Shown here in pieces: positions 4,616-64,000 of a stretch of 64,000 bases of DNA; position 1 is the stretch's first letter, and the number at the start of each line of letters is the position of its first letter. The position numbers and the translations under genes were made by a program. The stretch covers positions 1,922,001 to 1,986,000 of the forward strand of contig NZ_CP129966.1 in assembly GCF_030503595.1 (NCBI RefSeq). Direction: 5' to 3'. Source of the stretch: Corynebacterium sp. P4-C1 (GTDB taxonomy: Bacteria; Actinomycetota; Actinomycetes; Mycobacteriales; Mycobacteriaceae). The notes beneath the pieces were generated by a model, which made no database searches, was not told the origin of the DNA, and saw only the letters and a list, made by a program, of their open reading frames with translations.

Positions 4616-4672
4616 CGACGAAACTGACCCCAGCCCGCGCAGAGGAGGCGGGGGCTGGGGTCAGTTTCGTCG
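4616..4672. terminator. bidirectional terminator between efeB and pqo
   Basis: A 21-bp perfect stem (4616-4636 paired with 4652-4672) with a 15-nt loop lies between the convergent ends of efeB and pqo. The core is CCCCAGCCC / GGGCTGGGG flanked by AAACTGA/TCAGTTT, so it gives a T-rich 3' side in both directions. The right foot of the stem, CGTCG, is also the first half of one copy of the 11-mer described separately. Confidence 0.85.
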
Positions 4673-4695
4673 ATAAGCGGAGCGGTGCGTGCGAT

Positions 4696-6447
4696 CTAGA
4701 ACTCGATCGCCGCTGCGCCGCGGATATTGCGGAGGTTGGAGCGGGCGAGTTCGACCATGTTGCCGATGCCGCCTTCCAAGACCGTCTTCACCGCGGATTC
4801 GGAGAAGCCCTTGATCATGGTCCAGTCGAAGTTCGGCGGCAGGGACAGCGCATCCGGGTCGGTGACGATGTCCACGAGCACCGGGCCGTCGTGTGCCAGA
4901 GCCTTTTTCAGGGTCTTCTCCAGATCCTGCGGCTTTTCCACACGGAAGGACGTGATGCCCACCGCCTCCGCGATCGCCGCGTAATTCACGCCGTCGTGGT
5001 CGGTCTCGAATTCCCTCAAGCCGGCGACCATCATCTCCAGCTTGACCATGCCGAGGCTGGAATTGTTGAACACCACCATCTTCACGGGCAGGTCGTGCTG
5101 CTTCACGGTGATCAACTCACTGAGCAGCATAGACAGTCCGCCGTCGCCGGAGAAGGTGATCACCTGGCGGTCGCGGTCCGCCGCCTGTCCTCCGATGGCC
5201 TGCGGGAGGGCGTTGGCCATGGTGCCGTGGCGGAAGGAAGCCAGCTCCTCCTTCTCGCCGTTCGGGGTGATGTAGCGGGCGCCCCACACATTGCACATGC
5301 CGGTATCGACGGTGAACAAGGCATTGTCGTCGGCGAGCCCGTCGATAAGCTGCGCGACGTACTCCGGGTGGATCGGCGTGGCCTTCTCCTTCTTGCCGTA
5401 ATTCTCGATCACGGTCTCCAGAAGGTGTGCGTGCTCCTTGAGCATCTTGTCCAGGAACGTGCGGTCCTTCTTCTCCTCGACGTGCGGGAGAATATTCTCG
5501 ATGACGCTCTTCACATCGCCGACTACCGGGTACTTCACGTTGGTGCGGCGGCCGATGTTCTCGCCCTTGATGTCCACCTGAGCGACATTCTTGGTGGGCA
5601 GCCAGTCGTTGTACGGGAAATCCGTGCCCAGCATGATGAGCAGGTCGGCCTCGTGGGAGGCCTGGTAGCACGCGCCGTAACCGAGCAGGCCGTTCATGCC
5701 CACGTCGAAGGGGTTGTCGTGCTGGATGTGCATCTTGCCGCCGAAGGAGTGGCCGATCGGGGACTTGATCTTCTCCGCGAGCTGCAGCACCTCCTCGCGG
5801 GCGTTGGCGGTGCCCACACCGCAGAAGAGCGTAACGCTGTCCGCCTCGTTAATGGCTTGCACGAGCTTCGCTGCCTCGGCCGGGTCCGGGAAGACGCGCT
5901 TGTCGTCGCCGCGGGCGATGCTGGACTCCAGCACCGGCATGTCCTCGGCGTTCTGGCTCGCGATATCTCCCGGCATGACGAAGACGGACACGCCCTTGCC
6001 AGCCATCGTGGACTGGATGGCGTTGTGCAGGATGCGGGCGCCCTGCGCCGCGGAATTGGCCATCTCGCAGTAGCCGGAGCACTCCTGGAAGATCTTCTCC
6101 GGGTGCGTCTCCTGGAAGAACTTGGAGCCGATCTCCTGGCTCGGAATGTGCGAGGCGATAGCCAAAAGCTTGGCACCGTTGCGGTGCGAGTCGTACAGGC
6201 CCTGGATCAGGTGGGTGTTGCCGGGGCCGCAGGATGCCGCGCACACCGCCAGCTCACCGGTCACCAGGGACTCGGCGCCGGCGGCGAATGCGGCTGCTTC
6301 TTCGTTGCGGACGTGAATCCACTCAATATTCGAGTGCGCGACTGCGTCCGATACCGGGTTGAGCGAGTCGCCGACGAGGCCGTAAATTCGCTTCACGCCG
6401 TTGCGCTCTAGGGTCTCCACGATCTGCTTCGCGAAGTCTTTCGCCAT
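4696..6447 (-). CDS. pqo: pyruvate:quinone oxidoreductase (pyruvate dehydrogenase, quinone)
   Basis: 583 aa thiamine-diphosphate flavoenzyme that oxidatively decarboxylates pyruvate to acetate and passes electrons to the quinone pool at the membrane. Visible features are the N-terminal PYR domain (GLVGDSLNP, catalytic-type Glu in RNEEAAAFAAGAE), a central FAD-type domain, and the ThDP motif GDGGLSM...NNSSLGM. Start ATG at 6447 was chosen because GGAGG lies directly upstream, and the longer open frame adds 27 basic residues unlike the family. Length matches corynebacterial Pqo. It is monocistronic and convergent with efeB. Confidence 0.93.
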   Translation of the reverse strand: MAKDFAKQIVETLERNGVKRIYGLVGDSLNPVSDAVAHSNIEWIHVRNEEAAAFAAGAESLVTGELAVCAASCGPGNTHLIQGLYDSHRNGAKLLAIASHIPSQEIGSKFFQETHPEKIFQECSGYCEMANSAAQGARILHNAIQSTMAGKGVSVFVMPGDIASQNAEDMPVLESSIARGDDKRVFPDPAEAAKLVQAINEADSVTLFCGVGTANAREEVLQLAEKIKSPIGHSFGGKMHIQHDNPFDVGMNGLLGYGACYQASHEADLLIMLGTDFPYNDWLPTKNVAQVDIKGENIGRRTNVKYPVVGDVKSVIENILPHVEEKKDRTFLDKMLKEHAHLLETVIENYGKKEKATPIHPEYVAQLIDGLADDNALFTVDTGMCNVWGARYITPNGEKEELASFRHGTMANALPQAIGGQAADRDRQVITFSGDGGLSMLLSELITVKQHDLPVKMVVFNNSSLGMVKLEMMVAGLREFETDHDGVNYAAIAEAVGITSFRVEKPQDLEKTLKKALAHDGPVLVDIVTDPDALSLPPNFDWTMIKGFSESAVKTVLEGGIGNMVELARSNLRNIRGAAAIEF

Positions 6448-8071: not shown

Positions 8072-8854
8072 ATGCGTATTGGACTCGTGCAATTCACCGC
8101 CGGACCGGACACCGCCGACAACCTCACGGCGCTGTCCGGGCACATCCGCACCGCCGCGGACAAAGGCGCGACACTCATCGTGTGCCCCGAAGCCTCCTCC
8201 CAGGCATTCGAGTCCGGTCCGCTCCAGGACCAGGCCGAGGGGCTCGACGGGGCATTCGCGACCGGGCTGCGCCAGCTTGCCGACGAACTCGGCGTCACCA
8301 TCGTCGCCGGCATGTTCCGCCCCGGCGACGGCGGACGCGTGCGCAACACCGCACTGATCACAAACGGCCGCGACCTGCACGAAGGTTACGACAAAATCCA
8401 CGCCTTCGACACCGAGAGCTACCGCGAATCTGACAACGTTGAGCCCGGGACGGAGCTGCACACCTTCGGCCATGAAAGCGCGACGGTGGGCTGCGCCATC
8501 TGCTTCGACATCCGCTTCCCCGACCAATTCCAGGAGCTCGCCCGCCGCGGCGCCCATATTGTCGTCGTGCCCACCAGCTGGGCCGGAGGCGAAAACAAGG
8601 TCGAGGAGTGGACCGCTCTCACGCGCGCCCGCGCCCTCGATGCAGGCGTGTTCGTCCTCGCGCCCGACCAGGCCAATCCGGAAGGAGCTACGGGCGCCAC
8701 GTCGAATTCCGATCCGCTCGGTGTCGGCCACTCCATGGCCGTCGCCCCGAACGGCACGGTGCTCGCGCAAGGGGGATTCGACGAGGAGGTCATCGTCGTC
8801 GACATCGACCCCGCCGAGGCGACCCGCCGCCAAGCTGCTGTGCCGATCCTCTAG
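8072..8854 (+). CDS. nitrilase-superfamily carbon-nitrogen hydrolase (amidase)
   Basis: 260 aa. The Glu-Lys-Cys triad is visible: Glu in IVCPEASS, Lys in EGYDKIHAF and Cys in GCAICFDIRFP. The length and the DKIHAFD / CFDIRFP signatures fit the branch of the superfamily that holds omega-amidases and deaminated-glutathione amidases, but the exact amide substrate cannot be read. ATG 8072 is preferred over an in-frame TTG at 8063 because a TANNNT box lies 8 nt upstream, which suggests a leaderless transcript. It is convergent with the next gene, their ends overlapping by 4 bp. Confidence 0.85.
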   Translation: MRIGLVQFTAGPDTADNLTALSGHIRTAADKGATLIVCPEASSQAFESGPLQDQAEGLDGAFATGLRQLADELGVTIVAGMFRPGDGGRVRNTALITNGRDLHEGYDKIHAFDTESYRESDNVEPGTELHTFGHESATVGCAICFDIRFPDQFQELARRGAHIVVVPTSWAGGENKVEEWTALTRARALDAGVFVLAPDQANPEGATGATSNSDPLGVGHSMAVAPNGTVLAQGGFDEEVIVVDIDPAEATRRQAAVPIL

Positions 8855-9630
8855 ATCCGGCGTAGCACCAGCCAATCCACCGCGCCCGCCAAGGATTCCA
8901 GGGCCGGCTCGCGGACATCGACAACAAGCGCAACCCGCTTATCGACGCCCCCGAACACCGCCGCCCTCACCCCCGCCAGCCGGGCCCCAGTGGCATCCAC
9001 TTCCGTGTCTTCCGGGAACTCGAACCGCTCACCCCGCGCATTCCCGCACGTCCAGTACTCACCGACTTCCGGGCGCCGCCACCAGTCCGGAACGTAGAAC
9101 ACCAGCTGCCCGAACCGGTTCGACGGAAGCGCCGGCGCGAGGTCGTGCCACTGGCCGGCCTCCCCGTACGCGCCGGGCACGAGCACCGGCAACGTCTGCC
9201 CCGGCGCATACTCGACCGGCACCGGGGCCTCCAGGTGCACCGCGACCATTCCGCCGCCGGAGCTGTCCGAGCTCTCCAGCTCCACCACGGCTGTGACCTG
9301 TGCCGCCGTCGCCGGCGGGATGCCCTGCAGATCAGCCTCCCGCGCGGCATCCGCCATGGTGGACAGCGTCTGCGCCATCGCCGCCCACGCCTCCTCAACA
9401 TCGCCGGGGCGGTCCCACAGCGCCCTGAGCAGTGCCTCGCCGAGGGGGTCTACCAGTTCCTCGTAGGATTCCGGCGGCAGGCCTAGCCTGCGGCGGTCCA
9501 AGGCGGTGGGGGCGGCGAGCGAGGGGGTGAGGAGGGCCTCGACAAGCGCGCCCACTTCCTCCGTCGTGCCCGAAAGCTGAAACTCCAGCTCTTCCCGCTC
9601 GGCGGCCGACAAACTCACAACCTGATCCAT
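8851..9630 (-). CDS. flavohemoglobin-like protein without a recognisable NAD domain
   Basis: 259 aa. The N-terminal ~130 residues are helical with a globin-like tail (LGEALLRALWDRPGDVEEAW). Residues ~140-200 resemble the start of a ferredoxin-reductase-type FAD domain (VPVEYAPGQTLPVLVPG, FGQLVFYVPDW). The C-terminal part lacks the usual GxGxxP nucleotide-binding loop, so this may be a reduced or divergent flavohemoprotein relative. The typical flavohemoprotein is near 390 aa. A function in NO detoxification should not be assumed. Homology is judged by eye only. Confidence 0.5.
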   Translation of the reverse strand: MDQVVSLSAAEREELEFQLSGTTEEVGALVEALLTPSLAAPTALDRRRLGLPPESYEELVDPLGEALLRALWDRPGDVEEAWAAMAQTLSTMADAAREADLQGIPPATAAQVTAVVELESSDSSGGGMVAVHLEAPVPVEYAPGQTLPVLVPGAYGEAGQWHDLAPALPSNRFGQLVFYVPDWWRRPEVGEYWTCGNARGERFEFPEDTEVDATGARLAGVRAAVFGGVDKRVALVVDVREPALESLAGAVDWLVLRRI

Positions 9631-9703: not shown

Positions 9704-11071
9704 ATGGAATTCACGGCCTACGACATGCTTGTCGACGTTGGATGGATCTCCGTCCTTCTCATCATCGGCAACATCCTCCGCCAGCGTGTCCATGTGCTGC
9801 AGCAACTTCTGTTGCCGGCGCCGATCACCGCGGGCCTCATCGGCCTCGTTCTCGGCCCCGAAGTGCTCAACATTGCCCAATTCTCCGACCAAGTGGGCAA
9901 GTACACGTCCATTCTCATCGCCGTCGTGTTCGCGTCGATGGCGTATTCCATGGACCTCGGCGGCTCCGTGGCCAAGGGCGCACGGAACATGTGGGCGTTT
10001 TCCACCACCATGTTCATGTTCCAGTGGGGCCTGTTCGTGCTCGCGGGAATCTACCTGTTCAAGCCCGTGTTCGGCACTGAAGACTGGTTCGGCATGATGC
10101 TGCCCGTCGGCTTCGTCGGCGGCTTCGGCACCGCCGCAGCGGTCGGCTCCGCGCTGGAAGACTCCGCCGGAGCCGTCGCCGCTTCCTCCCTCGGCTTCAC
10201 CTCCGCCACCGTGGGCACCCTTGTCGCCATCATCGGCGGCGTCATCGTGGCCAACTGGGGTATCCGCAAAGGCAAAGCTACCGAACTGCAGGGCGACCTG
10301 CCGAAGGAACTGCGCTCCGGCTACATCGAGAACGAAGCCGAGCGCCCATCCATCGGTAAGGCGACCACGAACCCCTCGTCCATCGAGCCCCTTGCCCTGC
10401 ACGGCGGCTTCATCGTCTTCACCGTGCTCGTGGCGTACGAGGTGAACAACTTCCTCTCCAACACCTGGGAGAACGTCTCGATCCCCCTGTTCGCCCTCTC
10501 CTTCGTCATCGGCTTCATCGGCCGTGGTCTGCTGCGCCTGTTCAAAAAGCCCAACTACCTGGACAAGGACACTGTCTCCGCCATCTCCGGTGCCGCCACC
10601 GACTACATGATCGCCTTCGGCATCGCCTCCATTGTCCCCGCCGCCCTCGCCTCCTACTGGCAGGCACTGATCCTCCTGTTCGTGCTTGGCACCCTCTTCT
10701 GCATCTTCTACCTGCTGGTCATGGCGCCGCTGTACTTCGGCGAACAGTGGATCGAGCGCGGCATCTTCGGCTGGGGGTGGGCCACCGCTGCAGTCGCCAC
10801 CGGTATCGCGCTGCTCAAGATGGTCGATCCGAAGCTCAAATCCGGCACGCTCAACGAGTACGGCGTGGCTTACGTCGGCTTCGGACCCTTCGAGATCGGC
10901 ATGACCATCCTCGCCCCAATCGCAGTGATTGCTTCCTTCACCGGACCATTCGGCTGGATCGCCACCGCCATCGCGGCTGGCATCTTGGTGATGGGCTTCG
11001 CGCTCAAGTGGATCCCCGCGAAGAAATACGCCGGCGTACCGTCGGCCCAGATCTCGACGAAGAAGAGTTAG
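9704..11071 (+). CDS. gltS: sodium/glutamate symporter family protein
   Basis: 455 aa integral membrane protein with about 11-12 hydrophobic segments. It shows the GltS family pattern: an N-terminal repeat with LLLPAPITAGLIGLVLGPE, the GGFGTAAAVGSALED re-entrant region, and a second glycine-rich region (GWGWATAAVATGIALLKMVDP) in the C-terminal half. It should import glutamate, or a related acidic substrate, with Na+. An AAAGG ribosome site precedes the ATG. Its stop overlaps by 3 bp with the stop of the convergent regulator gene. Confidence 0.85.
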   Translation: MEFTAYDMLVDVGWISVLLIIGNILRQRVHVLQQLLLPAPITAGLIGLVLGPEVLNIAQFSDQVGKYTSILIAVVFASMAYSMDLGGSVAKGARNMWAFSTTMFMFQWGLFVLAGIYLFKPVFGTEDWFGMMLPVGFVGGFGTAAAVGSALEDSAGAVAASSLGFTSATVGTLVAIIGGVIVANWGIRKGKATELQGDLPKELRSGYIENEAERPSIGKATTNPSSIEPLALHGGFIVFTVLVAYEVNNFLSNTWENVSIPLFALSFVIGFIGRGLLRLFKKPNYLDKDTVSAISGAATDYMIAFGIASIVPAALASYWQALILLFVLGTLFCIFYLLVMAPLYFGEQWIERGIFGWGWATAAVATGIALLKMVDPKLKSGTLNEYGVAYVGFGPFEIGMTILAPIAVIASFTGPFGWIATAIAAGILVMGFALKWIPAKKYAGVPSAQISTKKS

Positions 11072-12508: not shown

Positions 12509-15115
<2,607 letters not shown>

Positions 15116-15392: not shown

Positions 15393-16322
15393 TTACCGTC
15401 CGCGGCGCCGCTGCTCCCGGGAGATCGCCGCGGCCACTGTGGTGATGCAGTAATCGGGTTTGGTCAGAAGCTGGTGGGGAGTGAGACGGACAACGGGGTA
15501 CCCGAAGTTCTTGAGGAGGTTCTCGCGCTCGCGTTCCTTCAACAGGGTCTCTTCAACTCCGCCGAAGGTCACTCCGTCGTATTTCTGGGCGCCGTCGATT
15601 TCGACAACGACCTCACCGCGCGGACCGGCGAGAAGGTCGACTTCAATGTGGCGGTGGGCGTCGATGGGCATCCGCACATGCATCCGTACCTCGATCCCGG
15701 CTTCCATGAACAATCCTTGCGCGTAGGCTTCGAAAGGGGAAAGGGAGCGGGCGCTTGAGGCTTCTATGGCGGCGCGGACATTCCTGATTCCGCGGATTGG
15801 ACCAAGTTTGCTGGCCTGCCACACCATTTCTCGGTGGGGCATGTTGCGGTATTTGAGCCACGACATTGCTACCAACCCTTCGATAAAGCCGTGAGTGGCG
15901 GCGATATCGGCGGCGGTGCGGAAGGGGGAGAGGGCTCGGGTGCCGTCGATAAGCTGAAAGTGTTCTTCGGGCACGGTGAGTTTGCGGCACGACTCGCCTT
16001 TCGGGAGGTTAGCTGCTGTTTTGTAGCCGGAGCGGCCGAATGTGGTTTCGACGAGTTCCGGTGTGCGGGACACGACCCACATGCCGTGGACACGGGCGGA
16101 AGATCGTCCGATTAGGATCGCTCGGGTCTTGCCCCGGCCGACGGCTACTGCGCGAATCCACAACTGTTCGTAGCGTTTCAGGCTGTTGAAGAATGCGCTT
16201 GGGATTGCTTGGGTAGGGGCGAGCTGCGTGAGTTTGCCGGTTTCCAGTTCATGCCATGCTGGGTGGTTGGCCCCGGCTGTGCGGAGATTGATGAGTTTGT
16301 TGAGCACTTCGTCCCTGTCCAT
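15393..16322 (-). CDS. DUF559-containing protein, endonuclease-like fold
   Basis: 309 aa from ATG 16322. The N-terminal ~190 residues resemble AbiEi-like/transcriptional-regulator-antitoxin domains of mycobacterial DUF559 proteins (for example FGRSGYKTAANLP, FRTAADIAA). The C-terminal ~100 residues form a DUF559 domain related to Vsr/restriction endonucleases, with EVDLLAGPRGEVVVEIDG followed by KERERENLLKNFGYPVVRLT, placing the acidic and Lys/Glu positions of that fold. Biochemical role unknown. The gene sits alone between two copies of the 104-bp repeat, which hints at joint mobility. Confidence 0.7.
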   Translation of the reverse strand: MDRDEVLNKLINLRTAGANHPAWHELETGKLTQLAPTQAIPSAFFNSLKRYEQLWIRAVAVGRGKTRAILIGRSSARVHGMWVVSRTPELVETTFGRSGYKTAANLPKGESCRKLTVPEEHFQLIDGTRALSPFRTAADIAATHGFIEGLVAMSWLKYRNMPHREMVWQASKLGPIRGIRNVRAAIEASSARSLSPFEAYAQGLFMEAGIEVRMHVRMPIDAHRHIEVDLLAGPRGEVVVEIDGAQKYDGVTFGGVEETLLKERERENLLKNFGYPVVRLTPHQLLTKPDYCITTVAAAISREQRRRGR

Positions 16323-17119: not shown

Positions 17120-17959
17120 ATGAGCGTATTCGTGTCCCCCGAAGACCTGCGTGAACAGATCCGTACCGGCAAAAAGCTCACTGTTTTAGCCTCGCTGTGG
17201 GATGCCCGTGAGGGCAATGCATGGTCGAAATTCCAGTCCGAGCACATTCCCACCGCCCAGTACTGCAACCCGGCCGAGCACCTCGTGGGCACGCCCGGTT
17301 CCCGTGTGGGGCGCAATCCGCTGCCGTCGGCGGAGCGCATCCAGGAGTCGTTCCGTGCCTGGGGCATTGAGGCGAACCGCCCGGTGGTCATTTACGACAC
17401 AGGCACGGGCGAGTTCGCGTCGCGCACGTGGTGGACTCTGCGTTGGGCGGGTGTAAAGGACGTGCACATCCTCGACGGCGGCTTCCCCGCGTGGGAGTCG
17501 AGCGGTTTTGACACGGTCGCGGGCCCAGGCCCGGTCTCGGTCCACACAGAACTGGAGGTCACGCCGGACCAGCTGCCCACCGCAAGTATCGAGGACGTGA
17601 AGGCTTTCAAGGGCATGCTTATCGACGCCCGAGACACCTCCCGCTACGTCGGCCAACGCGAGAACCTCGACCTGAAGTCGGGACACATTCCCGGTGCCCG
17701 CACCGTGCCGGTGGACACCCTGTTCAACGAGGACCGCACCGTCAAGCCTGCGGAGGAAATCCTGGAGGTGATGGCCAAGTTCGGCATCACGCACCAGACT
17801 GATCCGACAGAGGCGATCGTCTATTCGGGTTCAGGCAACCACTCGTCGAAACTGCTGGCCGCGTTCTCCCACGCCGGTCTGCCGGTGCTGACCCACTACA
17901 TCGGCGGGTGGTCGCAGTGGTCTGCCAACCCGAGCAACCCGGTGGAGCGCGATATCTAA
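17120..17959 (+). CDS. two-domain rhodanese (sulfurtransferase) with Ser at the catalytic position
   Basis: 279 aa made of two rhodanese domains (about 10-135 and 150-275), the layout of thiosulfate and 3-mercaptopyruvate sulfurtransferases. Structural signatures are present: SLWDAREG early, VIYDTGTGEFASRTWW and HILDGGFPAW in domain 1, IDARDTSRYVG and SGHIPGARTVP in domain 2. The active-site loop, normally CGSGVT or CRKGVT, reads Y-S236-G-S-G-N-H-S-S, so the sulfur-carrying Cys is replaced by Ser. Unless the reading contains an error, ordinary persulfide transfer is not possible. It could be a binding or regulatory rhodanese. Confidence 0.85.
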   Translation: MSVFVSPEDLREQIRTGKKLTVLASLWDAREGNAWSKFQSEHIPTAQYCNPAEHLVGTPGSRVGRNPLPSAERIQESFRAWGIEANRPVVIYDTGTGEFASRTWWTLRWAGVKDVHILDGGFPAWESSGFDTVAGPGPVSVHTELEVTPDQLPTASIEDVKAFKGMLIDARDTSRYVGQRENLDLKSGHIPGARTVPVDTLFNEDRTVKPAEEILEVMAKFGITHQTDPTEAIVYSGSGNHSSKLLAAFSHAGLPVLTHYIGGWSQWSANPSNPVERDI

Positions 17960-18084: not shown

Positions 18085-18966
18085 ATGGGATACATACTTC
18101 TGGGACTGTCTGCACTCGCCCTCGCCGGGGCGGGTCTTTTGTGGCGCGCGGATGCGCAAGCCAAGAGCGGCGGCGCTGAGCCCGCACCAGAGCAGGAGGC
18201 GGCACCTGAGCAGGAACCGCAGCGCACGCCAGAGCCGGAGCAGACGGAGCCGGAAACCGAGCAGGAAGCCGAGTCCGCACCGGGAGTGGACGCCGCACCG
18301 GGAGCTGAGGCCGCACCGGGAGCCGAGAAGACGCACTCGCGCTGGAGCGCGCTGACGGGGGCGATCAGCGGGGCCCTGCCCAGCACGCTGCCGGGGGCCA
18401 AGCAGCGCGAACGCAAGGGGCGCCGCGAGTGGGCGGAGGCCAACGGTTTCGAGTACGCGAAGGTCGACCAGTACCTCCAGGACGAGTGGAACCGCGGCGC
18501 GGCGTCGGCGGGCGAGCCAGTGCGCGATGTGTTGACTGGCACGCAGTTCGGGCACGAGACGCGTATCGCGGAGATCGGTGAGACGACAGTCGTGGCGATG
18601 GGGACGGGGATGGACAGTGGGGTGGTGGTGGATATGCGTCGTCAAGCGGATGGCGGTGCGGCCGCCACCGAGGACCTTGTCGCGGTCGCTGAACTCGAGG
18701 GCTTCCGTGTGTTCGCGAATGAGGCGGGGCCGGCCGAGCGGGTGCTGGACATCCGTGTGACCACGGCGCTTGAGCTTCTTCCGCAGCAGGTCAGCGCCGT
18801 GTGGTTCGAATCTGAATGGGTGCTCGCGCAGCTCGGGGGAACACCTTTGCCGCAGGATTGGGAACCGGTTTTCGCGCCGCTCGCCCTGCTTGCTGACGCC
18901 GCCCGCACCCCCCCCGCGCACCTGGCCCCACCTCCACTTCGAAAACAAGACCCGCCCGATGGGTGA
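18085..18966 (+). CDS. membrane-anchored protein of unknown function
   Basis: 293 aa. A single N-terminal helix (GYILLGLSALALAGAGLLW) is followed by a ~75-residue Pro/Glu/Ala-rich spacer (repeated PEPEQTEPE-like units) and a folded domain of ~180 residues (from WSALTGAI onward) that I do not recognise. TACAGT at 18070-18075, 9 nt before the ATG, suggests a leaderless message. The C-terminus overlaps the following small gene by 8 bp. Probably a lineage-specific envelope protein; orientation of the domain is not determined. Confidence 0.65.
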   Translation: MGYILLGLSALALAGAGLLWRADAQAKSGGAEPAPEQEAAPEQEPQRTPEPEQTEPETEQEAESAPGVDAAPGAEAAPGAEKTHSRWSALTGAISGALPSTLPGAKQRERKGRREWAEANGFEYAKVDQYLQDEWNRGAASAGEPVRDVLTGTQFGHETRIAEIGETTVVAMGTGMDSGVVVDMRRQADGGAAATEDLVAVAELEGFRVFANEAGPAERVLDIRVTTALELLPQQVSAVWFESEWVLAQLGGTPLPQDWEPVFAPLALLADAARTPPAHLAPPPLRKQDPPDG

Positions 18967-19237
18967 CCCCGTCAAACTCGAGGCAACCGCGAAAGACAAC
19001 AGCAACGACCCCGCGCGACCTGTCATCGCGCGCCCGGAGGAACCGCTCGAACTGCCCACCCGCACCACCGGCGGCGTCCGCGGCACCATGGAGTACCGCA
19101 CAGTCGGCACGGATGAGGTCGACGCCATCGCGACGGGCGAGCGGCCTGAGCAGCTTAACGACGGCACCCGCATCACCCGCCGCCCCCAACCCCCGTCGAT
19201 CTTCGGCGACAGCGACAGCGACGGCGCCGGTGACTAG
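18959..19237 (+). CDS. small hypothetical protein
   Basis: 92 aa, starting MGDPVKLEAT. Hydrophilic, with no membrane helix and no motif that I recognise. It overlaps the previous stop by 8 bp (translational coupling plausible) and ends 23 bp before pyrE. Support comes from the overlap architecture and GC-biased third positions, not from homology. Confidence 0.5.
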   Translation: MGDPVKLEATAKDNSNDPARPVIARPEEPLELPTRTTGGVRGTMEYRTVGTDEVDAIATGERPEQLNDGTRITRRPQPPSIFGDSDSDGAGD

Positions 19238-26049: not shown

Positions 26050-26835
26050 CTATGACGACCGCACCGACTGGATGTCGCGCAGGTGCCGGTAGAAGGTGAC
26101 GCGCTCTACCGGCCGCTTCGCCGGCACGCCGTCCACAGTGACCAGGATGGATCGGCCGCCGGATTGGAGGGCGCGGCCGGACGGGGTGGAGGTGCCGTCG
26201 ACGACAGTGCCTGACCGGAAGCGCTTCTTGCGGATCGCTGCCGCGGCGAGCCCTGGCGCATCCGTGGTGGGCACGAGGCGCGCGCCGAGTACGCGGCCGC
26301 GTCCATCGCTGCGGACCAGGATCTCGTTGTCCACGACGATCTCTCCTATATAAGGCGCGCCGTCCGCGTGCGTGAGTGTTGCGGACCCGGCGACGACGAG
26401 CCCAGCGTCGTTACGGATGCAGGGGACGGGGAGCACGGAGCCTTCGAGCGCGAAACGCTCAGCGTCATCGGGAATGTCCCACAGCACGGCGGCGGGGGAG
26501 GCGGGGTCGACGGGTACATACGCGATTTCCGCCCACAGGTAATCCCCGCGCATCATGCGAGTGAGCACGGCAGACAACGCGGCGTCCGTGCCGGAGACAA
26601 TGACGCGGAGCCGCTCATCCGGCTGTTGCGGCGCGAGCGCAGGCTCGCCCAGGTGCGAAACATTCGGGGAGGCTGCGATTTCCTGCAGCGACGGCGTCGG
26701 GTCGACGGGGAGCACTTCGCGCGCAATCTTGTCGAGAAACTTCAGGTCGCGGCGCGAGGGAACGGGCGGGAGGGGGTGGTGCTCGGCGCCGTCGATAAGC
26801 GTGTCCGTGCCGCACGCGCAGTGAATAAGCCGCAT
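26050..26835 (-). CDS. conserved hypothetical protein, weakly lipid-kinase-like
   Basis: 261 aa from ATG 26835 (a GTG three codons upstream is possible; neither has a ribosome site). The middle RVIVSGTDAALSAVLTRMMRGDYLWAEIAYVP faintly recalls the nucleotide-binding half of diacylglycerol-kinase-like proteins, and the C-terminal half is beta-rich. This similarity is by eye and weak. The gene is divergent from the NUDIX gene. One 11-mer copy at 26790-26800 is read as L-I-D in this frame. Confidence 0.6.
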   Translation of the reverse strand: MRLIHCACGTDTLIDGAEHHPLPPVPSRRDLKFLDKIAREVLPVDPTPSLQEIAASPNVSHLGEPALAPQQPDERLRVIVSGTDAALSAVLTRMMRGDYLWAEIAYVPVDPASPAAVLWDIPDDAERFALEGSVLPVPCIRNDAGLVVAGSATLTHADGAPYIGEIVVDNEILVRSDGRGRVLGARLVPTTDAPGLAAAAIRKKRFRSGTVVDGTSTPSGRALQSGGRSILVTVDGVPAKRPVERVTFYRHLRDIQSVRSS

Positions 26836-29157: not shown

Positions 29158-29214
29158 AGCCAGATTGGTCCCTGGACGGGCGGGGTAGCGGCGCTCGGTT
29201 TCGGTGTGTTTTTA

Positions 29215-49699: not shown

Positions 49700-50666
49700 C
49701 GTACAGCACCTGACCAAAGAATATGGCCAGGTCCGCGCGGTCGACGACCTCACGTTCCGGGTCGAACCCGGCGTGGTCACCGGCTTCCTCGGGCCGAACG
49801 GCGCCGGCAAATCAACGACGATGCGCATGATCCTTGGCCTGGACACGCCGACATCAGGCAGCGCGCTTATCGACGGTGTCCCCTACCGCTCCCTCAAACA
49901 CCCCCTCCACAAGGTCGGGGCACTCCTGGACGCCAAAGCGATCCACCCCAACCGCTCCGCCCGCAACGCGCTGCTGTGGCAGGCACAAGCCTCCGGGATC
50001 CCCACCTCGCGCGTCGACGAAGTCCTCGACCTTGTCGGCCTGACCTCCGTGGCCGGTAAGAAGGCGGGCAGCTTCTCCCTCGGCATGGGACAGCGCCTCG
50101 GCATCGCCGCCGCCATGCTCGGCAACCCCGAGTACCTCATTCTCGACGAGCCCGTCAACGGCCTCGACCCCGAAGGCATCCGCTGGGTCCGCGAGCTGCT
50201 GCGCCGCTTCGCCGCCGAAGGGCGCACGGTGCTCGTGTCTTCCCACCTGCTCTCCGAGATGTCGCAGACCGCCGACCGGCTCGTCGTTATCGGCAAGGGC
50301 CGCCTCGTGGCCGCCGGGTCCGTCCACGAATTCATCAAGGAGAACTCCACCCTGACCACCGTTGTGCGCTCGCCGCACCTCGATCAGTTCGCTTCCGCAC
50401 TGCACGCCGAGGGCATCGAGTTCTCCCAAGCCGCGGACCTCGACGGCCGCCCGACACTCGAGATCCCTGAGCGCTCCTCCGAGGACATCGGCGCCCTCGC
50501 TTTCTCCACCGGTGTCATGGTCACCGAGCTCACCGAGCGCCGCGCCACCCTCGAGGACGCCTACATCCGCCGCACCGAGAGCGCCGTCGAGTACCACACC
50601 GGGCTACCCGGTGCTCCTGCTCCGGCCGCTTCCAGCGATTCCACGACGGGAGAATACCGTGCTTAA
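49692..50666 (+). CDS. ABC transporter ATP-binding protein (ABC-2 type exporter)
   Basis: 324 aa. Walker A GPNGAGKST, Q-loop region, a variant signature FSLGMGQRL, Walker B LILDEPVNGLDPEG and H-loop SSHLLSE. The ~100-residue C-terminal extension is typical of BcrA/CcmA-like exporters of drugs or lipids. Its stop overlaps the permease start region by 8 bp, so the two are a coupled pair. An 11-mer copy (49865-49875) reads A-L-I-D-G. Confidence 0.9.
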   Translation: MIDVQHLTKEYGQVRAVDDLTFRVEPGVVTGFLGPNGAGKSTTMRMILGLDTPTSGSALIDGVPYRSLKHPLHKVGALLDAKAIHPNRSARNALLWQAQASGIPTSRVDEVLDLVGLTSVAGKKAGSFSLGMGQRLGIAAAMLGNPEYLILDEPVNGLDPEGIRWVRELLRRFAAEGRTVLVSSHLLSEMSQTADRLVVIGKGRLVAAGSVHEFIKENSTLTTVVRSPHLDQFASALHAEGIEFSQAADLDGRPTLEIPERSSEDIGALAFSTGVMVTELTERRATLEDAYIRRTESAVEYHTGLPGAPAPAASSDSTTGEYRA

Positions 50667-53474: not shown

Positions 53475-54253
53475 CGGACGTCGTCGATAAGCAAGCGCGT
53501 CACGTCGTAATCCGCGACGACGGGTGCGTGGTCGGATGCGCCCTTGCCTTCGCGCTCATGCTTATCGACGAACCCCCTTCCCTTAAGCCCCGTCAACTGG
53601 AAATCGATGAGCATGCCTTCATTCTTTTGGAAGCGCATCGCCTTGTAGTCCCAGTACGAGTACGGTTCATCATGCTCCACGGGGGCGAGACCGGACTCGA
53701 GGAGGTTGCCGAAGGCGGCGCGCTCCGGTTCCGTGACGTGCGTCTTGCCCTCGAAGAAGGCGCGGTCCCAGACGTCGGAGTCGGTGGGGGCGATGTTGTA
53801 GTCGCCGCAGAAGACCTGCGGGGTGCCTGGTTCGACCGCCTCGGCGAGACGCCAGAGGTACTCGAGCTTGTAGTCGTAGTGGCGGTCGCCGATTTCGCGC
53901 CCGTTCGGGATGTAGAGGCTCCAGATCTCGACGCCGCCGCAGGTGGCGCCCACCGCGCGGGCTTCCCGGTCCTGCGGTTTGTCGGGGTCCTTGTTGAAGC
54001 CGGGCTGGTTGGGGAAGTGGTCCCGCACATTGTCCAGCCCCACCCGGGAGATCAGCGCTACACCGTTCCACTGGTGATAACCGACGTGGGCGACCTCGTA
54101 GCCCGCGGCCTCGAAGGCCGAGTACGGGAATTTATCGTCCGAGCACTTCGTTTCCTGCATGGCCAGAACGTCCACGTCGTTGCGCTCCAAGAAAGCGACG
54201 GCGCGGTCGGCGCGCGTGCGCACCGAGTTGATGTTCCACGTGGCAATCCGCAT
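53471..54253 (-). CDS. xthA: exodeoxyribonuclease III / AP endonuclease
   Basis: 260 aa. Base-excision repair enzyme. Conserved residues visible: ATWNINSVR, MQETKCSDDKFP (metal Glu), CGDYNIAPTDSDVWD and the terminal SDHAPVVADYD (catalytic Asp-His). Stop and cls start overlap by 4 bp. Two 11-mer copies in inverted orientation lie 77 bp apart near its 3' end (53482 and 53560). Confidence 0.95.
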   Translation of the reverse strand: MRIATWNINSVRTRADRAVAFLERNDVDVLAMQETKCSDDKFPYSAFEAAGYEVAHVGYHQWNGVALISRVGLDNVRDHFPNQPGFNKDPDKPQDREARAVGATCGGVEIWSLYIPNGREIGDRHYDYKLEYLWRLAEAVEPGTPQVFCGDYNIAPTDSDVWDRAFFEGKTHVTEPERAAFGNLLESGLAPVEHDEPYSYWDYKAMRFQKNEGMLIDFQLTGLKGRGFVDKHEREGKGASDHAPVVADYDVTRLLIDDVR

Positions 54254-54281: not shown

Positions 54282-55301
54282 TCAGTCTTTCAGGGTGGCG
54301 TAGCGGTGGCGGTGGTGCTCGACGAATCCGAGTTTGTCGTACAGCCCGATGCCGGCATCGTTGCTGGCGAGGACCTGCAGGTACGCGTCCGTCGCGCCGC
54401 GCGAGGCACCCCAGCGGAGCATGTGCCAGCCCAGCTGAGTGCCCAGACCGCGGCGCCGGTGGCCGGGGGCGACCTCGACCGCCGAATAGCCCAGCCACAC
54501 ACGCCCGTCGTCCGAGGACGTGATGGTGCCACGGGTGATTGCGACTGTTTCCCCGTCGCCGTCAGCCAGTAAGCGGCCGAAGCCGAGTTCCCCGTCGATC
54601 TCCTCGGCGAGCTCCTTGAGAGCTTCCGGAGGCAGCGGCTGGCCGCGGAAGTGGTACATGCCCAGCCAGGCGGCATCGGGGTGAGAGTCGACGCGGAAGG
54701 TGGGCAAGGGAGCTGGCTCCGTGAATTCCGCCGCCTCAGACAGGTCAGCAAGGTCATCCTGGTCGGGGAGATCCGCGAGTGACCGTGTCATGGTGATGAT
54801 CTCCGGCCCCAGCTCCCACCTGTCCGGGTCGCGCTGGATGAGGTTGAGCGCCGGTTTGCCGATGCGCTCCGGAATCAACAACTGCACCGGCATCCCGCGG
54901 GAGCGGTAGAAGTCCGTGATCGCGTCGATCGGGACGGGCTGCAGGCCGGCAGAGTGGCCGATCGGGGTGGCGCTGTTGGAGCGCTCGGTGATGGAGGCGC
55001 CGGAGCGGGCGAGCCAGGCGTCGATAAGCGAATGTTCTTGGCCAGGGAACGCGCGAGCCGTGGCTGTCTCGACGGCGCGGATGTCGCTGTTGCGGATGCG
55101 GCGCGGGCTGAGACGGCGGACGATGAGCGGCTCGTCGATGCGGATCGCCTCGGCGTCGGACGGCAGGCCGCCGACCTTCTGCGGGCACACGACCAGCGGG
55201 TCGAGGGTGACAATGTGGCCGATCACATCTGTGGCGTGGTTGCCGTGGCGGCGGCGCACCACCACTCGGTCGCCCGGCGCAAGCGGTTCGGAGCGGAACA
55301 C
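54282..55301 (-). CDS. GNAT-family N-acetyltransferase (Rv0428c-like position)
   Basis: 339 aa, GTG start overlapping the def stop (TAGTG). N-terminal ~75 residues are beta-rich (GDRVVVRRRHGNHATDVIGHIV). The GNAT fold is in the C-terminal half, with the acetyl-CoA loop VEVAPGHRRRGLGTQL and late ASNDAGIGLYDKLGFVEHHR. Between xthA and def it occupies the place of Rv0428c in M. tuberculosis. Acetylation target unknown. Confidence 0.85.
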   Translation of the reverse strand: MFRSEPLAPGDRVVVRRRHGNHATDVIGHIVTLDPLVVCPQKVGGLPSDAEAIRIDEPLIVRRLSPRRIRNSDIRAVETATARAFPGQEHSLIDAWLARSGASITERSNSATPIGHSAGLQPVPIDAITDFYRSRGMPVQLLIPERIGKPALNLIQRDPDRWELGPEIITMTRSLADLPDQDDLADLSEAAEFTEPAPLPTFRVDSHPDAAWLGMYHFRGQPLPPEALKELAEEIDGELGFGRLLADGDGETVAITRGTITSSDDGRVWLGYSAVEVAPGHRRRGLGTQLGWHMLRWGASRGATDAYLQVLASNDAGIGLYDKLGFVEHHRHRYATLKD

Positions 55302-55886: not shown

Positions 55887-56108
55887 GTGGACTCCTTTGA
55901 CTTAGCCGTACTCGACTTCGCCGGCCGCGCTCCCCGCAGCCTCGGCGCCCGCGAAGACGCCATCAGGGCTGAGCTGGGCATATCGCCGTTCCGCTACTAC
56001 CAGCGCCTCAACGTGCTTATCGACGACCCCGCCGCCCTCGCCGAACGCCCCCAGCTTGTGCGCCGGCTGCAGCGGATTCGGGAGCAGCGGGTTCTCGGCG
56101 GGGGGTAG
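55887..56108 (+). CDS. DUF3263 family protein
   Basis: 73 aa, GTG start. A small helical protein ([40 protein letters not shown]) with a likely HTH-like core, matching DUF3263 and in the same position as Rv0430 of M. tuberculosis (divergent from def). Function unknown. An 11-mer copy reads V-L-I-D-D. Confidence 0.8.
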
Positions 56109-57966: not shown

Positions 57967-59124
57967 ATGACTGAGCCAGCAAACCAGGCCGTGATGGACC
58001 CGTTCCGGGACTTCGCCCGTTCGTCGGGTCCGAGCTTGGGCGTTGAGTGGGAAATCGCGCTCGTCGATCCAGAGACGGGGGATTTGGTGCCGCGCGCCGC
58101 GGAGGTCATCGAGGCGGTTGAGCAGCGGTGGCCGGAGACGCACCTGGAAAAGGAATTCCTGAAGAACACCATCGAGCTGGTCACGCCGGTGTGCGGCACG
58201 ACAGCGGAAGCGATGGAGTACCTGCGGGCCACGAAGGACAAAATCCAGCAAGTGGCCGACGAGAAGAACCTGCAGTTGTGGGCGGGTGGCGGCCACCCCT
58301 TCGCGGATTTCCGCACGCAGCCGGTGGGGGACAAGCCGACCTACACGGAGATCATTAACCGCACGCAGTACTGGGGCAAGCAGATGCTGCTGTGGGGCAC
58401 GCACGTACACGTGGGTATCCGGCACGAGGACCGCGTGTGGCCGATCATCAACGCGGTGATGACGAAATACCCGCACCTGCTGGCTATTTCCGCCTCAAGC
58501 CCGGCGTGGGAGGGCCTGGACACGGGCTACGCGTCGAACCGCACGATGCTTTACCAGCAGCTCCCCACCGCGGGCATGCCGTACCAGTTCGGTAGCTGGC
58601 AGGAGTGGGTGGAGTTCATGCGCGACCAGACGAAGTCCGGTGTTACGTCGCACACCGGCAGCATGCATTTCGACGTCCGCCCCGCCGCCAAGTGGGGCAC
58701 CGTCGAGGTGCGTATTTCGGATGCGGCGACGAACCTGGAGGAGCTCGCCGCGGTCGTGGCGCTCACGCACTGCCTGGTCGTGCACTACGACGAGATGATC
58801 GACCGGGGAGAGGAACTGCCCACCTTGCAGCCGTGGCATGTGGCGGAGAACAAGTGGCGCGGTGCCCGGTACGGTCTTGAGGCCGAGGTGATCACCAGCA
58901 GGGACACAGATGAGCGTCTCGTCACGGATGAACTGGTGGACATGGTGGAGGAGCTGGGGCCCGTCGCAAAGCGTCTCGGCTGTGTCGACGAGCTGAACCT
59001 CGTGCTCAAGATTGTGGAAAATGGCGCGGCCTACCAGCGTCAACGCGAGGTGTACGAGCGGACGGGCACGTGGCGCGGGGCCGTGGACCAGGCGGTTGCG
59101 GAGCTTCGCGCCGGGCACCCCTAA
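57967..59124 (+). CDS. YbdK-type carboxylate-amine ligase (GCS2 family)
   Basis: 385 aa. Member of the glutamate-cysteine ligase 2 family: [12 protein letters not shown] at the start, [37 protein letters not shown] and [20 protein letters not shown]. It should join an amino acid to a carboxylate with ATP; E. coli YbdK has weak glutamate-cysteine ligase activity. The place after a LytR_C gene equals Rv0433, but the sodC gene found between them in mycobacteria is absent. TATTCA 6 nt before ATG 57967 suggests a leaderless start. Confidence 0.88.
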
Positions 59125-59822: not shown

Positions 59823-60393
59823 GTTTCTGGGCCTTTCTCTTCTCAAAAATAGCGATCATCGAGCGCTCAAGCTTATCGACGTCCGCCAGCGCCTTCTCCA
59901 CATCCTTCTGCGTCCCCGCGGACAGAACGTGGATGGTCCAGGTGCGGTTCGCTAGATCGATGTCGGTGACACAGCCGCCGGGCTGGAGGTTGTAGGCGCA
60001 GGTGGCGAAGTACAGCGCCAGCTCGGAGTTGAGCCGCATCGGGACTTTGAAGATCGCGCTTTTGGGCGGGTCCGCCGGGCGCACCGCCAGCCAAGAGACC
60101 TGGACGGCGGCGACCAGCAGTTCGACGACCCACCTGACCAGGAACACGATCAGTTTGGGGATGTTCACGCTCACGCCGCCGGAGGGCAGTTTCGGCAGCG
60201 GCAGCAGCATGGTGATGACCATGCCCAAAGCGATGCCGGCAAAAACGTTGCCCCAGGTGAGCTCCCCCATGAGGAGCGCCCACATGAGCGTCATCCAGAA
60301 AATGAACCAGGGGCGGAAGCGGGCCGAGAAGTCCCGGAGGAAGGAGCGCTTCGGGTGCTTGCGCTGGGCGGGTGTGGAGGTCGTCGGGCTCAT
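59815..60393 (-). CDS. mnhE: Mrp/Mnh Na+/H+ antiporter subunit E
   Basis: 192 aa. Basic N-terminal head (~30 residues), helices (FIFWMTLMWALLMGELTWGN), and the conserved LTPGxx-like region replaced here by YNLQPGGCVTDID. The C-terminal domain is cytosolic with VDKL encoded by an 11-mer copy (59871-59881). Start overlaps the mnhD stop by 4 bp. Confidence 0.9.
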   Translation of the reverse strand: MSPTTSTPAQRKHPKRSFLRDFSARFRPWFIFWMTLMWALLMGELTWGNVFAGIALGMVITMLLPLPKLPSGGVSVNIPKLIVFLVRWVVELLVAAVQVSWLAVRPADPPKSAIFKVPMRLNSELALYFATCAYNLQPGGCVTDIDLANRTWTIHVLSAGTQKDVEKALADVDKLERSMIAIFEKRKAQKHG

Positions 60394-62195: not shown

Positions 62196-62676
62196 CGTCG
62201 CCCTCCTTCAAGGGGTCTTCGAAGGAGCGGGGCCCGAAAGCGTCGCCGCCGCTGCGCAAACGACCGGTCTCCGGGTCGTCGGAAGCGTCCGCGTCCGGGG
62301 CCGCCGAAGGGGTGGCCGGACGCGCGGCGATGGCCTGGTCCTCCGTGTCATGCTCGATCACGTCGTCGGTGCGGTAGCGGTACTGCCTGTACAGCAGTGC
62401 CAGGATGAACGACACCATCGCCATCGCGATCACGATCGCGGTGAGGATCATCGCCTGCGCCAGCGGGTCGGCTGATTGGTCGGTGGACATGGAGTCGCGG
62501 TCCAGGATCGGCGGGGCACCGGCCTGCCCGCCGGACTGCAGCAGCAAGAGGTTCGCGCCGTTGCCGATCAGCATCACGCCGAGCAGCATGCGCGTCATTG
62601 CTCGGTCCAGCATCAGGTATACGCCCGCCGCGATCAGCACGCCGGAGGCGATGAGCAAGAACAAATTCGCTTCCAT
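62188..62676 (-). CDS. mnhC: Mrp/Mnh Na+/H+ antiporter subunit C (NuoK-like)
   Basis: 162 aa with three helices (LFLLIASGVLIAAGVYLML first) and the NuoK-like GNGANLLLLQSG segment; DPLAQAMILTAIVIAMA in helix 3. A ~50-residue hydrophilic tail. Shares one base with mnhA (start and stop overlap). Confidence 0.93.
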   Translation of the reverse strand: MEANLFLLIASGVLIAAGVYLMLDRAMTRMLLGVMLIGNGANLLLLQSGGQAGAPPILDRDSMSTDQSADPLAQAMILTAIVIAMAMVSFILALLYRQYRYRTDDVIEHDTEDQAIAARPATPSAAPDADASDDPETGRLRSGGDAFGPRSFEDPLKEGDDE

Positions 62677-64000
62677 TACTGCACCTCCCCAGTTCGAGTT
62701 GTCGAGATTCCGCGTTCAGCTTGGGCACGCTTATCGACGTCTCGCCTTCTCCCCCGCAGCCGCGCCCCCGCCCGCTGCTTCTCCCGGGCCCGCTTGCGCT
62801 CCTCGTTCTTCCGCTGCAGGGCACGGGCACGGTCGCGTGCACGCTCCTTGCGCTCGTCCTCCTCGCGGTCGATCTGGCCGCCGAGTGAGGTGAGAATGTG
62901 CATGACCAGGCCGACGACGATGGTGTAGACACCGGCGTCGAAAAGTAGTGCGGAAGGAACCGTGACAGGCCCGATGAGCGGAAGTTCCGGCTCGATGTAG
63001 CCGCTGGTCAGCGGCGGGTGGCCGAGGAACATCGGGGCGACGGCGGCCGCGCCGGAGAGCAGCAGGCCGGTGCCGAGAAGTTTCGACGGGTCCACCGGCA
63101 GCGCCTCTTCGAGCTCGTCGCGGCCGCCGGCGAGGTAGCGCAGCGTGAGCGCCAGACCCATCACCAGGCCGCCGGCGAAACCTCCGCCGGGAGCGTTGTG
63201 GCCGGAGAAAAAGAAATACGCGGACAGCAGCACCATCGCGGGGAAGAGGAGACGGGTGACCACGTCGACCATGATCGAGCGGTTCTGGGCCTTCTCGCCT
63301 TCCACACCGGCGGCGAGCCAGCGCGGGCGGCGCGTGGACAGCGTCGGACGGCGTGAATCGCGCGTGAAGGACTGGGTCCGGTAAATCAAACTGGCCACGC
63401 CCGTCGCCGCGATGACCAGCACGCAGATCTCGCCCAGGGTGTCCGCCGCGCGCAGGTCCACGAGCAGCACGTTGACGGTGTTGCGCCCGTGGCCGATCTC
63501 GTAGGCCAGGTCGGGCATGAGCACCGAGATTGGCTCGGCCACCCGCGCTGACATCGCCGCCATGGCCACCACCACGACCGAAAGGCCGGTGCCCACCGAC
63601 AGCCATGCGCGCAGGCGGTTGTCCGCGTCCTTCTTCACATCCACCTCAGTGGGCAGCTTGCGCAGGACCAGCATGAACACGACCATCACGAGCGTCTCCA
63701 CCAGCACTTGCGTCAGCGCCAGATCCGGGGCACCGTGCAGCGCGAAGATCAGCGCCGAAGCGTAGCCGGTGAGCCCCACCAGGATCACAATGGACAAACG
63801 GTTGCGGATCATCGTCGCGGCGACCGCGCAGCTGATCATCACCATCACGGTCATGCCCTGCCACGGAGTGTCCCACAGGATCATGTGGGTGTCGGCCGTC
63901 TCGCCGAACACCAGCGCCGCCAGCGGCACCACCATCAGCACGCTGAAGATCACAGCCAGGTTGATGGTCAACGAACCGCGCTGCGTCGACGCCGTCAAAC
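62676..64000 (-). CDS. mnhA: Mrp/Mnh Na+/H+ antiporter subunit A, C-terminal part (MnhA-MnhB fused), partial
   Basis: The frame is open to the right window edge; the 441 codons present are the end of a large subunit A. They contain the DUF4040/MbhD-type helices (LVGLTGYASALIFALHGAPDLALTQVLVE), an MbhE-like segment (DTLGEICVLVIAATGVASLIY) and an MnhB domain (SAYFFFSGHNAPGGGFAGGL), which explains why no separate mnhB is seen. The ~60-residue tail is extremely charged (KERARDRARALQRKNEERKR). The NuoL-like N-terminal two thirds lie outside. An 11-mer copy encodes D-V-D-K-R near the end. Confidence 0.9.
   Translation of the reverse strand, partial: LTASTQRGSLTINLAVIFSVLMVVPLAALVFGETADTHMILWDTPWQGMTVMVMISCAVAATMIRNRLSIVILVGLTGYASALIFALHGAPDLALTQVLVETLVMVVFMLVLRKLPTEVDVKKDADNRLRAWLSVGTGLSVVVVAMAAMSARVAEPISVLMPDLAYEIGHGRNTVNVLLVDLRAADTLGEICVLVIAATGVASLIYRTQSFTRDSRRPTLSTRRPRWLAAGVEGEKAQNRSIMVDVVTRLLFPAMVLLSAYFFFSGHNAPGGGFAGGLVMGLALTLRYLAGGRDELEEALPVDPSKLLGTGLLLSGAAAVAPMFLGHPPLTSGYIEPELPLIGPVTVPSALLFDAGVYTIVVGLVMHILTSLGGQIDREEDERKERARDRARALQRKNEERKRAREKQRAGARLRGRRRDVDKRAQAERGISTTRTGEVQ

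What the first reader, a model, noticed from the sequence alone, without database searches (positions are those of the whole stretch)
4668..62739. An 11-bp word, CGTCGATAAGC, occurs 19 times in 64 kb on both strands
With roughly 62% GC assumed, an 11-mer of this composition is expected well under once in 64 kb on both strands; 19 perfect copies were found by reading. Flanks are not conserved, so it is not part of a longer repeat. It falls in four protein reading contexts plus one intergenic site and forces the CTT Leu codon in L-I-D sites, which points to selection on DNA rather than protein. Orientation is mixed (11 against 8), so a strand-polar signal is unlikely. Possible roles are an uptake-like sequence, a methylation or repair-linked word, or a nucleoid-protein site. 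I know of no described function for this word in corynebacteria.
Basis: partly seen in the sequence, partly recalled or inferred. Interest (0 to 1): 0.85.

Follow-up and report, generated by a model that had tools for sequence, protein, structure and literature searches.

The report
Actinobacterial DNA uptake word with dialects
Most Corynebacterium species carry hundreds to two thousand copies of one short DNA word, and sister species differ in the same one letter at many matching places, which resembles the passwords for taking up DNA of one's own kind that are known from Neisseria and Haemophilus relatives.

Summary
Confirmed and enlarged. The window holds 19 copies of CGTCGATAAGC (shuffles 0.08); the genome holds 493 (reversed control 2). 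Synonymous-codon shuffles do not explain it (244 in sampled genes against 27); there is no strand bias.

140 of 201 Corynebacterium genomes have 280-1,964 copies; in 140 genomes of 30 other genera the 11-mer occurs 0-7 times. Ten further genomes carry 625-1,184 copies of CATCGNNAAGC instead. In one sister pair 37 of 70 aligned words differ only by that G to A and 3 are unchanged.

Neisseriaceae DNA uptake sequence dialects behave like this. ComEC occurs in 201 of 201 genomes, a Tad-type ATPase match over the cut-off in 195. Best reading: an uptake signal for natural transformation with an unidentified receptor. Uptake, receptor and transformability are untested. Against: word-lacking species keep the machinery, 51 of 201 genomes have neither word in large excess, and scarcity in foreign DNA is not established.

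The parts
4668..4678 (+). CGTCGATAAGC, outside called genes, 16 G in 30 nt upstream
5340..5350 (+). CGTCGATAAGC, antisense in called gene
8937..8947 (-). CGTCGATAAGC, sense, 21 G in 30 nt upstream
14073..14083 (+). CGTCGATAAGC, sense
15944..15954 (+). CGTCGATAAGC, antisense
17617..17627 (-). CGTCGATAAGC, antisense
26790..26800 (+). CGTCGATAAGC, antisense
27065..27075 (-). CGTCGATAAGC, antisense
41340..41350 (+). CGTCGATAAGC, sense, 20 G in 30 nt upstream
44387..44397 (+). CGTCGATAAGC, antisense
44849..44859 (+). CGTCGATAAGC, antisense
47629..47639 (+). CGTCGATAAGC, outside called genes
49865..49875 (-). CGTCGATAAGC, antisense
53482..53492 (+). CGTCGATAAGC, antisense; 78 bp from the next, inverted copy
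53560..53570 (-). CGTCGATAAGC, sense
55019..55029 (+). CGTCGATAAGC, antisense
56015..56025 (-). CGTCGATAAGC, outside called genes
59871..59881 (-). CGTCGATAAGC, sense
62729..62739 (-). CGTCGATAAGC, sense
908..918 (-). other centre: CGTCGTAAAGC
2745..2755 (-). other centre: CGTCGACAAGC
8275..8285 (-). other centre: CGTCGGCAAGC
9727..9737 (-). other centre: CGTCGACAAGC
14539..14549 (-). other centre: CGTCGAAAAGC
18637..18647 (+). other centre: CGTCGTCAAGC
19153..19163 (-). other centre: CGTCGTTAAGC
21151..21161 (-). other centre: CGTCGACAAGC
22554..22564 (+). other centre: CGTCGAGAAGC
23544..23554 (-). other centre: CGTCGTCAAGC
39493..39503 (+). other centre: CGTCGAGAAGC
39930..39940 (-). other centre: CGTCGAGAAGC
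48886..48896 (-). other centre: CGTCGGCAAGC
58962..58972 (+). other centre: CGTCGCAAAGC

Best explanation
CGTCG-N2-AAGC, with a G-rich strand upstream in most species sampled, is a DNA uptake signal of Corynebacterium. A sequence-reading DNA receptor of the natural transformation machinery (ComEA/ComEC in the membrane and, by analogy with Micrococcus luteus, a Tad/Flp pilus outside) prefers DNA that bears the word. Fragments with the word enter and recombine more often, so copies accumulate and are kept by biased uptake and replacement at the homologous site (molecular drive), wherever the reading frame tolerates them. When the receptor's specificity changes, the copies follow: the second base went from G to A, or the reverse, across the genome in sister lineages, giving dialects that would favour DNA of close kin. 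Shown here: the word, its excess, strand symmetry, frame and codon bias, restriction of the 11-mer to one of 31 genera surveyed, the coordinated switch, the presence of com and tad genes.
For: Copy number 280-1,964 per genome in 140 of 201 Corynebacterium genomes, within reach of the roughly 900-5,900 that Frye et al. 2013 report for Neisseriaceae (section 'DUS dialects' read). Fixed 2-base gap: 268 copies against 7 in reversed sequence in 464 kb; gaps of 1, 3, 4 bases 11, 16, 4 against 8, 20, 9. Synonymous shuffle 27.2 +/- 4.5 against 244 observed. No strand bias: 655:649; over a grid of origins the largest lead-lag excess is 24 of 268 sampled copies, below the mean of 28 for random strands. 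Random spacing, CV 1.00. Dialects: CATCGNNAAGC 625-1,184 copies against 7-27 in 10 genomes that lack the G word, and one genome with both (G143: 352 and 1,337); the other 190 genomes have 12-213. Coordinated switch at orthologous sites: G004 against G006, 153,649 aligned bases at 80.0% identity; of 70 gap-free aligned words (of 87) 37 change by that base only and 3 are unchanged; reverse view 37 and 4 of 71 (of 85). Named pair C. kefirresidentii against C. sp. ACRPS: 7 of 10 comparable words (of 18) change by that base only, 0 unchanged. ComEC family in 201 of 201, T2SSE/Tad-ATPase family in 198 of 201, 195 over the cut-off; comEA-comEC and a tad locus read directly in the own genome.
Against: No experiment. 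The same machinery is present in word-lacking genomes, so it does not track the word. Conversely G075 (1,486 words, 90% complete draft) gave no TadA or TadZ match. No residue in Flp, TadE or TadF separated the dialects by eye in 21 sequences. 51 of 201 genomes have neither word in large excess. Words are not visibly scarcer in DNA that does not align between sister genomes (85 words in 180 kb of G006, 71 of them gap-free within the 154 kb aligned), so scarcity in foreign DNA is suggested only by part of one plasmid. The G-rich flank is missing in G142 and weak in G179. CGTCG outside the word also often has A at that base in G006 (141 of 493), so part of the switch may be general drift.
Confidence: 0.72

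Rival explanations
1. Binding site of a nucleoid or chromosome-organising protein whose specificity drifted, with sites following under selection.
For: About one site per 1.7-1.8 kb along the chromosome with random spacing; a strict bipartite site suits a DNA-binding protein.
Against: About 1,000 sites would each have to be re-selected for one base in sister lineages. Non-palindromic; no polarity. The 11-mer is in excess in one genus of 31 surveyed, and 51 of 201 genomes of that genus have neither word in large excess.
Confidence: 0.12
2. Recombination hotspot word of the Chi type, read by a helicase-nuclease during repair.
For: Non-palindromic, G-rich strand on one side, density in the range recalled for Chi.
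Against: No leading-strand bias for any origin on the grid. Switching of the whole set by one base is not what I recall of Chi. The repair enzymes of this genome were not examined.
Confidence: 0.07
3. Cis site for chromosomal DNA transfer by contact (conjugation-like, as in distributive transfer of mycobacteria, recalled) rather than uptake of free DNA.
For: The same drive would arise from any transfer that prefers the word.
Against: I did not search for transfer genes; the com and tad genes give a simpler route.
Confidence: 0.05
4. Methylation or restriction site.
For: Bipartite, non-palindromic sites are typical of Type I systems (recalled).
Against: Gap of 2, whereas I recall gaps of 5-8 for Type I; restriction predicts avoidance, not a 17-fold excess over the reversed control.
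Confidence: 0.03
5. Protein or codon-usage artefact, or a dispersed repeat element.
For: 216 of 268 copies sit in two reading-frame contexts.
Against: Synonymous shuffle gives 27 against 244; CTT 60% in L-I-D against 4% in L-I-(not D); 25 of 268 copies outside or at the edge of called genes; flanks differ in sequence from copy to copy.
Confidence: 0.01

Closest known systems
DNA uptake sequence (DUS) of Neisseriaceae, and its dialects (Frye et al. 2013, PMC3630211; abstract, one section and passages seen)
   Same: Short non-palindromic word in hundreds to thousands of copies, dialects differing by single bases, one genome with two dialects at once, few near-miss copies, some genomes of the group without it.
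   Different: Different phylum and word; bipartite with a free 2-base centre; G-rich tract on one side; no ComP-type receptor known; Tad/Flp genes rather than a classical type IV pilus; no uptake assay.
Uptake signal sequence (USS) of Pasteurellaceae
   Same: High-copy word on both strands, mostly in genes; from recall, a core with a compositionally biased flank.
   Different: The biased flank is G-rich here; the core is split; no notable use as inverted terminator pairs (13 neighbour pairs under 120 bp among 268 copies, mixed orientation).
Flp/Tad pilus-dependent transformation of Micrococcus luteus (PMC4322843, passages seen)
   Same: Actinobacterium with comEA, comEC and tad genes (passage of PMC6370729).
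   Different: The term 'uptake sequence' does not occur in that paper's main text; two tad clusters there, one locus read here.

Membership tests
DUS/USS uptake sequences | Very abundant short non-palindromic word, both strands equal | tested here: met
DUS/USS uptake sequences | Excess not due to protein sequence or codon usage | tested here: met
   (464 kb of one genome)
DUS/USS uptake sequences | Dialects: coordinated base change at orthologous copies in relatives | tested here: met
   (two pairs aligned)
DUS/USS uptake sequences | Host encodes transformation machinery | tested here: met
   but also in word-lacking species
DUS/USS uptake sequences | Word enhances DNA uptake and transformation | not testable with these tools
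   needs experiment
DUS/USS uptake sequences | Cognate receptor (ComP minor pilin in Neisseria) | tested here: inconclusive
   Flp, TadE, TadF alignments show no dialect-linked residue by eye; homology to ComP not tested
DUS/USS uptake sequences | Scarce in mobile DNA | tested here: inconclusive
   pTP10: 7 words, all within 5.8-13.1 kb of 50 kb seen; pET44827 0 in 29 kb; pJA144188 1 in 28 kb; phage BFK20 1 in 42 kb, word status of their hosts unknown; no scarcity in unaligned chromosome
Chi recombination hotspot | Leading-strand polarity | tested here: not met
FtsK-orienting words (KOPS) | Polarity toward the terminus | tested here: not met
Type I restriction site | Methylated; gap of 5-8 (recalled) | not testable with these tools
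   gap is 2; methylation unknown
Interspersed repeat (REP/MITE type) | Longer conserved unit | tested here: not met
   only 11 bases fixed, flank biased in composition only

The most novel reading that the evidence does not exclude
An uptake password arose independently in an actinobacterial genus and diversified into at least two dialects (G and A at base 2), perhaps a third (TGGCGTCGRA), read by a Tad/Flp-pilus-linked receptor. Dialect turnover would be a working genetic barrier among corynebacteria, and it implies that most of the genus is, or was until recently, naturally transformable.
Probability: 0.6. Interest if true: 0.93.

Novelty: new variant of a known kind. Interest (0 to 1): 0.87.

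Why it matters
Frye et al. 2013 call the need for short uptake words unique to Neisseria and Pasteurellaceae (passage). A Gram-positive case with dialects would be a third, independent origin and a Tad-type system in which to find the receptor. It would also predict which corynebacteria are transformable and with whose DNA. The word can be tested directly: put it in or leave it out.

Tried and rejected
Rejected: codon or protein artefact, replication-polar word, longer repeat. The apparent 3-base periodicity of G upstream comes from codon constraint: it shifts with frame and is weak between genes.

Led nowhere: unsupervised EM for dialects was swamped by coding periodicity and also failed when capped. 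The reversed-sequence control is uninformative because gapped counts are invariant under reversal; I used expected counts there. PF07811 (TadE) found 0 of 201 and, of 14 control genomes, only Caulobacter, so it says nothing about absence. CGGCGTCC in G147 and G128 looks like codon usage and was not pursued. Six of 201 genomes lacked a T2SSE match over the family cut-off (weak in G021, G075, G092; none in G024, G113, G119). Protein searches and two stretches showed the locus in G021, its TadA match cut by a run of N, and G113's partial TadZ match at a contig end. G075, G092, G119 and G024 gave no match in either search; they are drafts, 90%, 77%, 53% and 93% complete; all but G024 carry the word. 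The named scan gave only 16 Corynebacterium loci among 80. In C. phoceense (L098, no word) comEA and comEC matched only in part, with an N in the reading frame, so I draw nothing from it.

Literature: (open-access PMC library only; one search listed 8 of 34 papers, 10 of 16) showed nothing, by title and start of abstract, on this word or on an uptake sequence in corynebacteria. In one search, 25 papers contain the letters, 20 were listed, none looked relevant and none was opened. PMC5217627 scanned 569 genomes for spaced pentamer pairs; the abstract and the passages I saw attribute the patterns of three Corynebacterium genomes to CRISPR repeats; its section on novel motifs and its supplements were not read.
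Full report
WHAT IS THERE. The 11-mer CGTCGATAAGC occurs 19 times in the window (11 +, 8 -), 0.08 expected from shuffles, and 493 times in the 2.31-Mb genome (248 + 245; the word read backwards 1 + 1). In 464 kb of this genome (window plus 20 spaced stretches) the wider pattern CGTCG-N2-AAGC has 268 copies against 7 in reversed sequence. The centre is AT in 98 of the 265 that have full flanks, then AC 30, AG 25, GC 25, AA 21, TC 19. Gaps of 1, 3 or 4 give 11, 16 and 4 copies against 8, 20 and 9. Of the single-base variants at the nine fixed positions most are near or below the reversed control; the clearest exceptions are CGTCGNNACGC (50 against 9), CGGCGNNAAGC (34 against 12) and CATCGNNAAGC (19 against 5). 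Genome-wide CGTCGNNAAGC has 655 + 649 copies against 45 + 31.

FLANK. The 30 nt 5' of the AT-centre word are 52% G and 18% C where G and C are each 32%; downstream is near background. The G excess shows up at whichever codon position is free (antisense L-x-D frame: 82% G opposite codon position 3; V-x-K frame: mainly positions 1 and 3), and the 15 intergenic AT-centre copies have it with only weak periodicity. Other centres and two other species (G162, G029) share the tract; G142 does not, and has T at -1 in 75%. Of four A-dialect genomes it is clear in G006 and G144, weaker in G111 and nearly absent in G179.

NOT PROTEIN, NOT POLAR. Shuffling synonymous codons among 418 called genes gives 27.2 +/- 4.5 copies (largest 42 of 100 runs) against 244 observed, and for the 11-mer 3.3 against 83. 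Leu in L-I-D is CTT in 53 of 88 cases, in L-I-(not D) in 23 of 581. Of 268 copies, 159 lie antisense in the L-x-D frame, 57 sense in the V-x-K frame and 25 outside or at the edge of called genes (heuristic calls). Strands are equal; on a grid of origins the largest leading-minus-lagging excess is 24 of 268, under random strands 28 on average. The true origin was not located. Spacing is random (CV 1.00).

DISTRIBUTION. In 201 genomes of the genus, counts of CGTCGNNAAGC split: 140 have 280-1,964 copies, 61 have at most 134 (counted by me from the table). Most of the 61 are near the reversed control, some above it (G129 115 against 27) and some below (G081 8 against 61). In 140 genomes of 30 other genera of the family the 11-mer occurs 0-7 times; other centres and dialects were not searched there. 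The genus is Corynebacterium by the record titles of the nearest LepA matches, C. meitnerae at 91%.

DIALECTS. In C. sp. ACRPS, a relative of C. yonathiae and C. kefirresidentii with almost no CGTCGNNAAGC, many aligned positions read CATCGNNAAGC. Of 10 comparable words of C. kefirresidentii (of 18; local identity at least 70%), 7 differ by exactly this base, 2 more include it among other changes and none is unchanged, while 17% of other windows are unchanged; 8 of 10 comparable CATCG words of ACRPS differ by this base alone. A blind count of gapped words in 20 word-poor genomes (40 kb each) put CATCGNNAAGC at or near the top in G006, G111, G144 and G179, but not in G053 or G094, which the whole-genome count then showed to carry it. 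Genus-wide, 10 of the 61 word-poor genomes carry 625-1,184 copies (reversed control 7-27) and G143 carries both forms, 1,337 A and 352 G; the other 190 genomes have 12-213, often above the low reversed control, the highest G073 with 213. Sister genomes G004 (G word) and G006 (A word): over 153,649 aligned bases at 80.0% identity, 70 of 87 G words align without gap; 37 differ by G to A alone, 3 are unchanged. Of 71 aligned A words (of 85) 37 differ by A to G alone, 4 are unchanged. For CGTCG outside the word, 127 of 493 are unchanged as 5-mers and 97 change only that base to A. On a TadA tree of 21 sequences the dialect needs at least two changes on starred branches. A third word, TGGCGTCGRA followed by A-rich sequence, is in excess in G010 (316 against 26), G015 (284/23), G072 (338/21), G135 (318/29), more weakly in G148, G033 and G066, of 50 word-lacking genomes tested of 51; it lacks the AAGC half and its kinship is unsure.

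MACHINERY. The own genome has comEA (helix-hairpin-helix; SLBB just under the Pfam cut-off) next to comEC, and a seven-gene tad-type locus: ATPase (PF00437), two T2SSF proteins and a DUF4244 pilin are over their cut-offs; the names TadZ, TadE and TadF rest on position and sequence character, with no Pfam match over a cut-off. PF03772 is found in 201 of 201 genomes and PF00437 in 198 of 201, 195 over the cut-off. Matches to all seven tad genes are found in each of 20 fetched loci, TadC only in part in G138, and this includes two genomes with neither word (G132, G152). Micrococcus luteus, another actinobacterium, needs Flp/Tad pili for transformation (passages of PMC6370729 and PMC4322843). The machinery is therefore available but does not explain who has the word.

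MECHANISM. A reader whose specificity changes, with about a thousand sites following in the same direction, is what biased uptake plus recombination would produce, and it resembles what Frye et al. describe for Neisseriaceae: eight dialects, one genome with two at once, and only 21% more hits when one mismatch is allowed in the densest case (abstract and one section read). I therefore infer an uptake receptor. I could not name it: no residue of Flp, TadE or TadF separates the dialects by eye.

LIMITS. Counts by genome rest on one genome per species; thresholds are mine. Gene calls are heuristic. Only two species pairs were aligned. Scarcity in mobile DNA is suggested in plasmid pTP10, where all 7 words lie in one segment (5.8-13.1 kb) that holds tetAB and chromosomal-type genes, and is not seen in unaligned chromosome.

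Noticed in passing
window 27076-39492: 12.4 kb without any CGTCGNNAAGC, the longest gap in the window; G+C falls to 58-59% between 28 and 36 kb, with a PurA-like and a PhoD-like phosphatase reading frame (names from reading the translations).
   Followed up: partly
window, position not mapped: A short repeat around AACGGTAACAATCGAACGGT occurs in about 5-6 copies.
   Followed up: no
G010, G015, G072, G135 and others: Third abundant word TGGCGTCGRA followed by A-rich sequence, perhaps a further dialect.
   Followed up: partly
G143 whole genome: Both dialects at once, 1,337 A-words and 352 G-words, perhaps a genome caught in mid-switch.
   Followed up: no
G081, G066, G072: CGTCGNNAAGC rarer than its reversed control (8 against 61, 22 against 54, 20 against 73), possible avoidance.
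   Followed up: no
G147, G128: CGGCGTCC strongly in excess (127 in 80 kb; 48 in 40 kb), perhaps codon usage.
   Followed up: no
L217 (plasmid pTP10) 5777-13129: All 7 words of the 50 kb seen lie in one segment with tetAB and chromosomal-type genes (mshC, dihydroorotate dehydrogenase), as if that segment came from a word-bearing chromosome.
   Followed up: partly
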